64,000 bases of DNA. It comes from Paenibacillus silvisoli. GTDB lineage: Bacteria > Bacillota > Bacilli > Paenibacillales > Paenibacillaceae. Made by a program: the position numbers and the translations under genes. This document shows positions 59,703 to 61,299 of the stretch, one piece after another (the first letter of the stretch is position 1; the number at the start of each line of letters is the position of its first letter). The notes under the pieces were generated by a model. That model searched no databases. It was not told where the DNA came from and saw only the letters and a list, made by a program, of their open reading frames with translations. The stretch covers positions 3,578,001 to 3,642,000 of the forward strand of contig NZ_CP133017.1 in NCBI RefSeq assembly GCF_030866765.1, in the 5' to 3' direction.

Positions 59703-60137
59703 TTAAAACGAGACATATGCTTGCGCATGCTCGAATAAATAGGCGCGATCAAACTGTACGCATGGCTTTCCGATTTGCTCATTGAGATTCACTAATGCCG
59801 ATTCGATTAACTCCATTCGAACAGAGCCCCAAATGTCTCGCTTTTGTTGTGTGAAATCGACGCTGTCCAGCAAAGCCATTCCTTTCATCCGCTGAAAAGG
59901 AGCAGCCCACATTGTAAAATCGCCCTTCAAGGATGTACATGGAATTTCGAATTCCTTCAAACCAACGATTCCGGTAGTTGTAGAAATCGCTATGAGTCCG
60001 CAAATATACGAATCGTCTCCATGCTGCAGCTCTTCACTCAGCTTACGGTCAAACCGGAAACATTCGATCCGGGTAATTCTGCACTGCCGCAAAACATCAA
60101 GGGGATGAACATCTAGAGTTGGAATCGCGATCGGCAT
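59703..60137 (-). CDS. Orphan protein under SAM-I riboswitch; resembles an enolase-superfamily N-terminal (capping) domain
   Basis: 144 residues behind GGAGGG. CRITRIECFRFDRKLSEEL, LIAISTTTGIVGLKEFEIP and RMELIESALVNLNEQIGKPC follow the pattern of the mandelate-racemase/muconate-lactonising N-terminal capping domain (strand-strand, T-x-GI-x-G, then the helix ending S-AL-D-L-x-GKP). The catalytic TIM barrel is absent: the gene stops 15 residues after that helix, and no barrel frame follows. The upstream SAM-I riboswitch makes it part of the methionine/SAM regulon. The domain resemblance is inference, and function is unknown. It could be a free-standing cap, a decayed enzyme or a divergent regulator. 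Confidence 0.7.
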   Translation of the reverse strand: MPIAIPTLDVHPLDVLRQCRITRIECFRFDRKLSEELQHGDDSYICGLIAISTTTGIVGLKEFEIPCTSLKGDFTMWAAPFQRMKGMALLDSVDFTQQKRDIWGSVRMELIESALVNLNEQIGKPCVQFDRAYLFEHAQAYVSF

Positions 60138-60164
60138 ACTGTCCCTCCGTCTATGTCATAGTTA

Positions 60165-60208
60165 TAAAAAACAAAAATGACCTTTCTCTGGAATAAGAGA
60201 AAGGTCAT
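60165..60208 (-). terminator. Riboswitch-controlled intrinsic terminator
   Basis: A 13-bp perfect stem ATGACCTTTCTCT/AGAGAAAGGTCAT and a T-rich tail on the minus strand, between the SAM-I aptamer and the 144-aa gene. In S-box leaders, SAM binding favours this terminator. Confidence 0.9.
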
Positions 60209-60232
60209 GTAAATTCAAAGTCATATCCTCGC

Positions 60233-60353
60233 TCTTATCTCCCAGAAACATCGCGTTTCTGCAAGAATTAGCACCGTGCATTCCTTTGATGAACAAAGGT
60301 CTGTCGGTTGCCGGGCTTCATCGGGCTAGTCCCTCCGCCTACTCTTGATAAGA
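60233..60353 (-). ncRNA. SAM-I (S-box) riboswitch aptamer
   Basis: On the minus strand the conserved core reads GAGTAGGCGGAGGGACTAGC, CCGATGAAGCCCGGCAACC, then GGTGCTAATTCTTGCAG and GGGAGATAAG. P1 is TCTTATC pairing with GATAAGA. All hallmark S-box blocks are present and in order. An intrinsic terminator follows at 60165-60208. This is one of the surest features of the window. Confidence 0.95.
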
Positions 60354-60378
60354 AAGTTCAACGTATTCAATTATTACA

Positions 60379-60406
60379 ATCATACTATAAAGCCATTTGT
60401 TGTCAA
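60379..60406 (-). promoter_or_regulatory. Sigma-A promoter of the riboswitch transcript
   Basis: On the minus strand, perfect TTGACA (60406-60401), 16-bp spacer, TATGAT (60384-60379), about 25 bp before the aptamer. Confidence 0.8.
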
Positions 60407-60417
60407 GAAATTTAAAG

Positions 60418-61227
60418 CTAAAGTGCGACCTTTTTTAGTCCTGAATTCAATGTGGAGATATACATATAATCCCCGGCGCAGCACATATCGGTTACCGGAT
60501 AACCGCTGAGCATCGCTTGCAGGATGACCCGGGATCCCAACATCTGAATTCGGTATAGTCCCTGGCTGGAGCAGACGTATACGCCTGTTTTCGTTGCTTT
60601 CAGGGAGTAAAGGGTTATACCTTCGAAGCCGCATAAAGTAAACCCTCCCTTTTGATTGCCTTGCACCAGTTTCCCCTGAAGACTGGCACCGAGCAATCGG
60701 CCTTGAACGACCGCTAAGCTTGTGACCGCATCTCCGAGCGGAAAATCGAACCCCGAATCCGTATAAAGGTCGTAGAGCGAAATGCCCTGTTGCGTGCCAA
60801 GCAAGTAATATTGCGGAGTCAGAAGCAGATCATACACGGCGATGTTCCGGTATGCGATATTTTCCCAGCGCATTCCGATTTTGTACCAGATCCCGTACTC
60901 TGTAGCCGCCGCGAAAAATGCGCCGTTTTTGACGACTTGGAAGCAAGGAATCGTTATTTCGGTCGCATACCACATATTCGCATCATGGTAAAACAATCCC
61001 TTATTCGTGCAGGCGTAGACCGAGCCGTCAATCACCCGCAGCCGGTTAACGACGGTTCCTTCCGGCAGCCCCTCATCTGCTTGCGACCATTTATCTTCAT
61101 GATTTTTGCGGAAAATGTGATTTCCGAATGCAGCGGCGAACATCATATCCTTATTCGCGCTAACGGATAAAATATCTGGCGATGGACAATCGGTCACATC
61201 GGAAACGACTTGAAATGGAGCAACCAC
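60418..61227 (-). CDS. Propeller-like protein under a Fur box
   Basis: 269 residues, GTG start at 61227 behind AAAGGAT. The listed in-frame extension to 61299 would run through the promoter and Fur box, so it is rejected. Repeated blades of about 40 residues (VFAAAFGNHIFRKNHEDKW-like, VYACTNKGLFYHDANMWYA, LLGTQQGISLYDLYTDSGFD, VYVCSSQGLYRIQMLGS) suggest a five- to seven-bladed beta propeller, with no signal peptide. Cysteines occur at the repeats (CFQVV, LCGFEG, VCSSQG, DMCCAGDY). The function is not recognised; iron-dependent control is inferred from the Fur box. Confidence 0.7.
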   Translation of the reverse strand: MVAPFQVVSDVTDCPSPDILSVSANKDMMFAAAFGNHIFRKNHEDKWSQADEGLPEGTVVNRLRVIDGSVYACTNKGLFYHDANMWYATEITIPCFQVVKNGAFFAAATEYGIWYKIGMRWENIAYRNIAVYDLLLTPQYYLLGTQQGISLYDLYTDSGFDFPLGDAVTSLAVVQGRLLGASLQGKLVQGNQKGGFTLCGFEGITLYSLKATKTGVYVCSSQGLYRIQMLGSRVILQAMLSGYPVTDMCCAGDYMYISTLNSGLKKVAL

Positions 61228-61277
61228 ACTGCCACATCCTTTACGTGATGAAGTGATTTTCACTTCTATATAGTAAT

Positions 61278-61299
61278 TGATAATGATTATCGATGTCAA
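61278..61299 (-). promoter_or_regulatory. Fur box overlapping a sigma-A promoter
   Basis: TGATAAT-G-ATTATCG (61278-61292) matches 14 of 15 positions of the 7-1-7 Bacillus Fur consensus TGATAATNATTATCA. Minus-strand TTGACA (61299-61294) is directly upstream, so the box fills the promoter spacer, a classical repressor position. Confidence 0.85.

What the first reader, a model, noticed from the sequence alone, without database searches (positions are those of the whole stretch)
59703..60406. SAM-I riboswitch controls an orphan enolase-superfamily-like capping domain
The S-box aptamer, its terminator and a strong promoter are unmistakable, but the regulated 144-aa protein is not one of the usual S-box products (metE, metI, metN, metK, yitJ, mtn genes). 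By eye it follows the N-terminal capping domain of mandelate-racemase/muconate-lactonising enzymes without the catalytic barrel. A cap-only protein in the methionine/SAM regulon would be new to me. It might bind a methionine-cycle metabolite or partner a barrel protein elsewhere.
Basis: partly seen in the sequence, partly recalled or inferred. Interest (0 to 1): 0.7.

Follow-up and report, generated by a model that had tools for sequence, protein, structure and literature searches.

The report
Methionine riboswitch captured by potassium-operon gene
A small protein shaped like the lid of enolase-type enzymes, whose relatives sit in potassium-uptake operons under a c-di-AMP riboswitch, has here come under the SAM (methionine) riboswitch of the metA gene, probably by fusing to the copied front end of that gene, so one protein family answers to two unrelated RNA sensors.

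Summary
A SAM-I aptamer (RF00162, 76.9 bits), terminator, antiterminator, promoter and Shine-Dalgarno lie upstream of a real 144-aa gene under purifying selection. The fold guess is right too: the protein is an enolase-superfamily (MR/MLE) capping domain without the barrel. Foldseek's best matches are all MR/MLE enzymes, and the family profile matches the N-terminal cap of full-length Paenibacillus proteins with an MR_MLE_C barrel (E = 6e-18).

It is neither an orphan nor a truncation. It belongs to an unnamed cap-only family found in 151 of 396 genomes of the bacterial family. Most relatives with a detectable leader use a c-di-AMP riboswitch; many lie directly upstream of kdpFABC or beside an RCK (K+-gating) domain gene. 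SAM-I-linked copies form one clade (19 rows, support 99/99) nested among c-di-AMP-linked ones. Their promoter, aptamer, terminator and first ~45 codons derive from metA. One species keeps a full-length MetA N-terminus on the cap protein. In all 20 genomes with the SAM-I copy, another SAM-I riboswitch controls metA.

So this is regulatory capture: a K+/c-di-AMP gene re-wired to SAM. The protein's biochemical role is unproven; I infer a non-catalytic accessory of K+ homeostasis made during SAM shortage.

The parts
60401..60406 (-). -35 box TTGACA of the leader promoter
   Evidence: Sequence; aligned with the metA promoter of Paenibacillus sp. Root444D2
60379..60384 (-). -10 box TATGAT (16-nt spacer)
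   Evidence: Sequence; conserved in the metA leader alignment
60232..60354 (-). SAM-I (S-box) riboswitch aptamer, RF00162
   Evidence: 76.9 bits, E 2.6e-16, model 1-108 complete
60193..60238 (-). Antiterminator: 3' P1 strand AUAAGAG (60238-60232) complementary to CUCUUAU (60199-60193) in the terminator arm and loop
   Evidence: Sequence complementarity and fold of the segment, -18.3 kcal/mol; predicted, not measured
60166..60208 (-). Intrinsic terminator: 13-bp hairpin (60208-60177) and U-tract (60177-60166)
   Evidence: RNA fold and coordinates; same position and near-identical sequence in the metA leaders of the P. aceris group
60144..60148 (-). Shine-Dalgarno GGAGG
   Evidence: Sequence
59703..60137 (-). 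144-aa cap-only protein gene (coordinates include the stop codon)
   Evidence: ORF; orthologues and purifying selection; cap fold
60120..60137 (-). Codons 1-6 (MPIAIP): remnant of the metA start; residues 10-13 (VHPL) may be a further remnant
   Evidence: Leader DNA alignment to Root444D2 metA runs through these codons; orthologues keep 20-43 MetA-like residues. The window peptide itself no longer scores as MetA (2.2 bits)
59703..60084 (-). Capping domain, about residues 19-144, ending in a conserved C-terminal strand AYVSF
   Evidence: AlphaFold secondary structure E20-29, E44-53, E58-66, helices 74-120, E138-143; family alignment

Best explanation
This is a SAM-I-riboswitch-controlled, stand-alone enolase-superfamily capping domain that arose by regulatory capture. 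Shown by sequence: (1) the family consists of cap domains that lost the barrel; (2) most members with a detectable leader carry a c-di-AMP (ydaO) riboswitch, and many sit directly upstream of kdpFABC or next to an RCK-domain gene; (3) one duplicate became joined in frame to a copy of metA's promoter, SAM-I aptamer, terminator, ribosome site and first ~45 codons, and all SAM-I-linked copies descend from that single event; (4) it has been kept under purifying selection in about 20 species. Regulation (inferred from S-box precedent and the leader's anatomy): high SAM closes P1, the terminator forms and transcription stops; low SAM lets the antiterminator form, so the cap protein is made together with MetA. 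Function (inferred): a non-catalytic accessory of K+ homeostasis. The c-di-AMP/kdp copy would be made when K+ (and so c-di-AMP) is low, and the captured copy supplies the same kind of activity when SAM is low. The anatomy and history are about 90% likely; the K+-accessory role about 35%.
For: Aptamer and expression platform. Cap fold: AlphaFold pLDDT 88; the 50 listed Foldseek hits are all MR/MLE enzymes, best E 6.7e-4; profile versus PDB best hit YitF 2gdq, E 0.008; three distant members touch PF02746, best E 0.0034; profile versus full-length MR_MLE_C proteins E 6e-18. c-di-AMP linkage: of 122 loci examined, 39 have RF00379 just upstream on the same strand, 21 have it on the divergent neighbour and 12 have SAM-I, against only 6-13 RF00379 per genome. 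kdp linkage: 16 of 16 checked non-SAM copies in the window's genus and in the metA-donor-like species lie 0.4-1.4 kb upstream of kdpA on the same strand; the divergent neighbour is an RCK/TrkA-N fold. Capture: in all 20 genomes with the SAM-I copy another SAM-I is on metA; MetA N-terminal profile hits L222 at 48.0 bits, L193 37.8, L174 29.2, L005 28.5, L002 19.9, against at most 9.2 for 500 shuffles each, and none of the c-di-AMP-linked members convincingly; leader DNA 73-79% identical to metA over 420-440 columns, window leader 75% over 319 columns; SAM-I-linked proteins form one clade 99/99 inside c-di-AMP-linked ones. Selection: dN/dS of the cap 0.17-0.43 in pairs where dS is at least 0.2. 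S-box on a metA operon is known in Paenibacillus (PMC5670726); c-di-AMP OFF-switch of kdpFABC is proven in B. thuringiensis (PMC6488665).
Against: No experiment shows that this leader responds to SAM or that the protein is made. The window protein's own N-terminus is too eroded to score as MetA; its origin rests on leader DNA and on its orthologues. It scores no Pfam or NCBIfam family. SAM-I copies are monocistronic without conserved neighbours, so the K+ role rests only on the paralogues. Fifty of 122 relatives have no detected riboswitch. Three genomes appear to keep only the SAM-I copy while their kdpA lies elsewhere (G007, G017, G430). One SAM-I copy carries an in-frame TGA (G004).
Confidence: 0.68

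Rival explanations
1. After capture the SAM-I copy took on a new task in methionine metabolism, for example binding a methionine-cycle metabolite or MetA (through the MetA-derived N-terminus), and no longer serves K+ homeostasis.
For: It is co-regulated with metA in all 20 genomes. It is not next to kdp or RCK genes. Some genomes keep only this copy. Its sequence has diverged from the kdp-linked paralogue (48% identity in the window's genome).
Against: The MetA-derived segment is not consistently conserved and is almost gone in the window, L003, L004 and L006, so it is unlikely to be the working part. No methionine gene is adjacent.
Confidence: 0.22
2. One reading: the cap partners a barrel protein encoded elsewhere and completes a two-piece enolase-superfamily enzyme.
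For: The cap fold is real, and natural caps close over barrels.
Against: The 11 solid MR_MLE_C matches in the genome are in ORFs of 371-476 aa with room for their own cap; the twelfth is a 60-aa scrap with a stop. No conserved barrel neighbour in the related loci.
Confidence: 0.05
3. A decaying relic: a truncated enolase gene that happens to lie behind a riboswitch.
For: It lacks the barrel and all catalytic residues; G004 carries a stop codon.
Against: More than 100 cap-only relatives, none with a barrel at this length; purifying selection; leader, terminator and start codon conserved across 20 species.
Confidence: 0.04
4. The S-box was gained independently of metA, and the MetA-like N-terminus is chance.
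For: The window's own N-terminus scores no better than shuffles, and its leader resembles its own metA only in the aptamer.
Against: Full-length leader and 43-residue N-terminal homology in P. alginolyticus and others. Aptamer identity to metA of the P. aceris group averages 0.86, against 0.57 to the metN-like S-box.
Confidence: 0.01

Closest known systems
SAM-I (S-box) riboswitch RF00162, in particular the metA leader of Paenibacillus
   Same: Aptamer, terminator and antiterminator layout, promoter and ribosome site; leader homologous to metA leaders. S-box on an operon encoding homoserine O-succinyltransferase is reported in P. riograndensis (PMC5670726).
   Different: The regulated gene is a cap-only protein, not a methionine enzyme or transporter.
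Mandelate racemase / muconate lactonizing enzyme N-terminal capping domain (PF02746), enolase superfamily; YitF 2gdq as best PDB profile match
   Same: Fold and sequence homology to the cap of full-length MR_MLE_C proteins.
   Different: No barrel, no catalytic residues, below the Pfam detection limit; ends in its own conserved strand AYVSF.
c-di-AMP (ydaO) riboswitch control of kdpFABC, B. thuringiensis (PMC6488665)
   Same: Relatives lie between a c-di-AMP riboswitch and kdpA.
   Different: The B. thuringiensis paper describes kdpFABC without a cap-only gene; the window copy has SAM-I instead.
RCK/TrkA-N gating domains of K+ transporters (KtrA, MthK, KefB)
   Same: The frequent divergent or operon neighbour (C0) has this fold.
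   Different: It is a free-standing N-domain without the C-domain or membrane part, and it is a neighbour of relatives, not of the window gene.

Membership tests
SAM-I (S-box) riboswitch, RF00162 | Covariance-model score above the gathering cut-off over the whole aptamer | tested here: met
   76.9 bits vs 44.4, model 1-108
SAM-I (S-box) riboswitch, RF00162 | Terminator / antiterminator expression platform downstream of P1 | tested here: met
   13-bp hairpin plus U-tract; P1 3' strand complementary to the terminator arm
SAM-I (S-box) riboswitch, RF00162 | SAM binding and SAM-dependent termination | not testable with these tools
   Needs in-line probing or in vitro transcription
Enolase superfamily (MR/MLE) enzyme | N-terminal alpha+beta capping domain | tested here: met
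   AlphaFold and Foldseek; profile match to caps of barrel proteins, E 6e-18
Enolase superfamily (MR/MLE) enzyme | C-terminal (beta/alpha)7-beta barrel with catalytic Lys and metal-binding acids | tested here: not met
   The protein is 144 aa and ends after the cap; relatives of 230-386 aa show no barrel either
Enolase superfamily (MR/MLE) enzyme | PF02746 gathering score | tested here: not met
   No Pfam match for the window protein up to E 10; best family member E 0.0034
Kdp / c-di-AMP-riboswitch-associated cap family (defined here) | Profile match to the family alignment | tested here: met
   E about 1e-53; the window is itself a row of the alignment
Kdp / c-di-AMP-riboswitch-associated cap family (defined here) | c-di-AMP riboswitch and kdp or RCK neighbour | tested here: not met
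   The window copy has SAM-I and unrelated neighbours; its paralogue in the same genome has both RF00379 and kdpA
MetA (homoserine acyltransferase) | MetA domain or significant N-terminal similarity | tested here: not met
   No MetA domain; window N-terminus 2.2 bits. Orthologues keep only the first ~43 residues

The most novel reading that the evidence does not exclude
A barrel-less enolase cap has become a free-standing regulator of K+ uptake working with KdpFABC and a free RCK domain, and capture of the metA leader produced a second version that ties K+ supply to SAM shortage (SAM synthetase needs K+; from my own knowledge, not tested here).
Probability: 0.2. Interest if true: 0.82.

Novelty: new variant of a known kind. 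Interest (0 to 1): 0.64.

Why it matters
Riboswitch regulons are usually explained by the ligand's pathway. Here one protein family is controlled by two unrelated riboswitches, and the switch from c-di-AMP to SAM can be read from the sequence: a piece of the donor gene's coding region is still attached in several species. That makes it a documented case of how a gene changes its RNA sensor. It also brings to light an apparently undescribed, widespread family of enolase caps without barrels in the c-di-AMP/K+ regulon, with a free RCK-domain partner. Both the regulation and the K+ role can be tested with simple knock-outs in culturable soil Paenibacillus.

Tried and rejected
Direct family look-ups of the window protein (Pfam, NCBIfam, PDB phmmer) gave nothing; the weak Tyw1 hits are chance. 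A scan of genome contigs with the whole-family alignment failed for lack of conserved words; the SAM-clade alignment worked. Conserved neighbours of the SAM-I copies were sought and not found. An orphan barrel partner was sought in the window's genome and not found. A fused barrel in the longest cap relatives was sought and not found. Plasmid and phage homologues: none. An aptamer tree alone is too short to resolve the donor: the window aptamer falls near its own metA in the tree although its pairwise identities favour the other cap-gene aptamers and then the P. aceris-group metA; the leader alignments decided it. A first proximity count missed aptamers that overlap the open frame; recounted. 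Papers: nothing held on a cap-only enolase family or on SAM-I or c-di-AMP switches of this gene.

Full report
Observation. The window holds one Rfam match, a complete SAM-I aptamer at 60354-60232 on the minus strand (76.9 bits, gathering score 44.4). Around it lie a -35/-10 promoter (60406-60379), a 13-bp terminator hairpin with U-tract (60208-60166), an antiterminator formed by the 3' P1 strand and the terminator arm, GGAGG, and a 144-aa ORF.

The protein. Alone it matches nothing. Homologues were found in 20 of 60 related genomes and, with a family profile, in 151 of 396 genomes of the same bacterial family. An AlphaFold model built on 29 homologues has mean pLDDT 88. The 50 listed Foldseek hits in the PDB are all mandelate-racemase/muconate-lactonizing enzymes, matched over about 110 residues. 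The sequence profile finds YitF (2gdq) at E = 0.008, and three distant members touch PF02746. The firmest link is by sequence: full-length proteins of about 395 aa in P. planticolens and P. chondroitinus (L249, L250), with an MR_MLE_C barrel above the Pfam cut-off, match the family profile in their N-terminal cap at E = 6e-18 and 8e-18. So the fold guess is right. The cap-only state is a property of the whole family, not a truncation of this copy; even the longest relatives (230-386 aa) lack a barrel. In this genome the 11 solid barrel matches are in ORFs long enough to hold their own cap, so a split enzyme is unlikely.

Relatives and their switches. Of 122 family loci examined, 39 have a c-di-AMP riboswitch just upstream on the same strand, 21 have one on the divergent neighbour, 12 have SAM-I, and 50 have neither at the thresholds used. 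A genome holds only about 6-13 c-di-AMP riboswitches and typically two SAM-I riboswitches, so this is far above chance. The paralogue in the window's own genome (L021) lies between a c-di-AMP riboswitch and kdpA. All 16 non-SAM copies checked in the window's genus and in the metA-donor-like species lie 0.4-1.4 kb upstream of kdpA. In 48 loci the cap gene has a neighbour, mostly divergent, that encodes a free RCK/TrkA-N domain, often with its own c-di-AMP riboswitch, sometimes two in tandem. In B. thuringiensis a c-di-AMP riboswitch shuts off kdpFABC when c-di-AMP is high (PMC6488665). The family therefore belongs to the K+/c-di-AMP regulon.

How the SAM-I copy arose. All 20 genomes found with a SAM-I-linked cap gene carry a second SAM-I riboswitch on metA; four comparison genomes with only a c-di-AMP-type or leaderless copy have the metA one alone. 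In one genome (G028) a third S-box precedes a gene that reads as a methionine ABC-transporter ATPase. The N-terminal extension that SAM-I-linked cap proteins have before the cap domain is MetA. In P. alginolyticus (L222) it reads [43 protein letters not shown], against [43 protein letters not shown] in the MetA of the same genome. A MetA N-terminal profile scores 48.0 bits there and 19.9-37.8 bits in four others, against at most 9.2 bits for shuffles; c-di-AMP-linked proteins do not match. The DNA agrees: metA and cap-gene leaders of the same genome align at 73-79% over 420-440 columns, from the -35 box to about codon 45. The window's leader aligns at 75% over 319 columns with the metA leader of Paenibacillus sp. 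Root444D2, from the -35 box to codon 6, but with its own metA only in the aptamer region. The 19 intact SAM-I-linked proteins form one clade (99/99) nested among c-di-AMP-linked ones, next to the kdp-linked copies of P. alginolyticus and its kin. Inference: the capture took place once, in a lineage with the longer metA aptamer, and the gene then reached the window's lineage by descent or transfer. In the window's branch most of the MetA peptide has been lost; its N-terminus no longer scores as MetA.

Selection. dN/dS of the cap domain is 0.17-0.43 in pairs with dS of at least 0.2, 0.26 for the window against its nearest orthologue, similar to or somewhat higher than kdp-linked copies. One copy (G004) has an in-frame TGA. 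The gene is maintained, not decaying.

Mechanism. Shown: leader anatomy, fold, homology and history. Inferred from S-box precedent: high SAM terminates transcription, low SAM lets it through, so the cap protein is co-expressed with MetA. Inferred from the relatives: the ancestral task concerns K+ homeostasis, and without a barrel the protein cannot act as an enolase-type enzyme, so an adaptor or regulatory role is most likely. The SAM-I copy either supplies that activity during SAM shortage (preferred) or has moved to a methionine-related task (main rival).

Novelty. The riboswitch class and the fold are known. The stand-alone cap family appears undescribed (no Pfam or NCBIfam model; nothing in the papers held). 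The change of riboswitch by in-frame capture of another gene's 5' end is a new variant that is directly readable in the sequence.

Noticed in passing
L249:1686-2873 (+), L250:1543-2721 (+): Full-length enolase-superfamily proteins (about 395 aa) whose cap is the closest barrel-bearing relative of the cap-only family. By eye they keep the K-x-K motif and two metal acids but lack the usual Lys near the C-terminal end of the barrel (NIHPGCAGSL).
   Followed up: partly
L074:390-953 (-), L112:3094-3513 (+) and 46 further loci: Small free-standing RCK/TrkA-N-domain protein (C0), usually divergent from the cap gene and often with one or two tandem c-di-AMP riboswitches; no curated family passes its cut-off.
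   Followed up: partly
L222 (P. alginolyticus), cap gene frame from about 1715 (+): Intermediate form: the cap protein still carries a complete MetA N-terminus (43 residues) behind the metA-type SAM-I leader.
   Followed up: yes
L010 / G004:C42:137221-137640: SAM-I-linked cap gene with an in-frame TGA; the copy looks broken in this species.
   Followed up: no
L022, L024, L025, L027: kdp-linked cap genes of the window's genus with no detectable c-di-AMP riboswitch even at E 0.1; how they are controlled is unknown.
   Followed up: partly
L059, L060, L064-L066, L068, L080, L081: A group of cap genes without any Rfam leader, mostly between the RCK-type gene and a convergent PTS permease gene; possibly another or a diverged regulatory element.
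   Followed up: no
L062, L063, L074, L075: Cap and RCK genes with divergent c-di-AMP riboswitches next to genes that read as proline dehydrogenase and/or an aldehyde-dehydrogenase-family enzyme (by eye), suggesting an osmolyte link.
   Followed up: no
window 60418-61299 (-): 293-aa protein with at best a weak beta-propeller match (PF23366, E 0.023), just upstream of the riboswitch promoter; no evidence that it belongs to the same unit.
   Followed up: no
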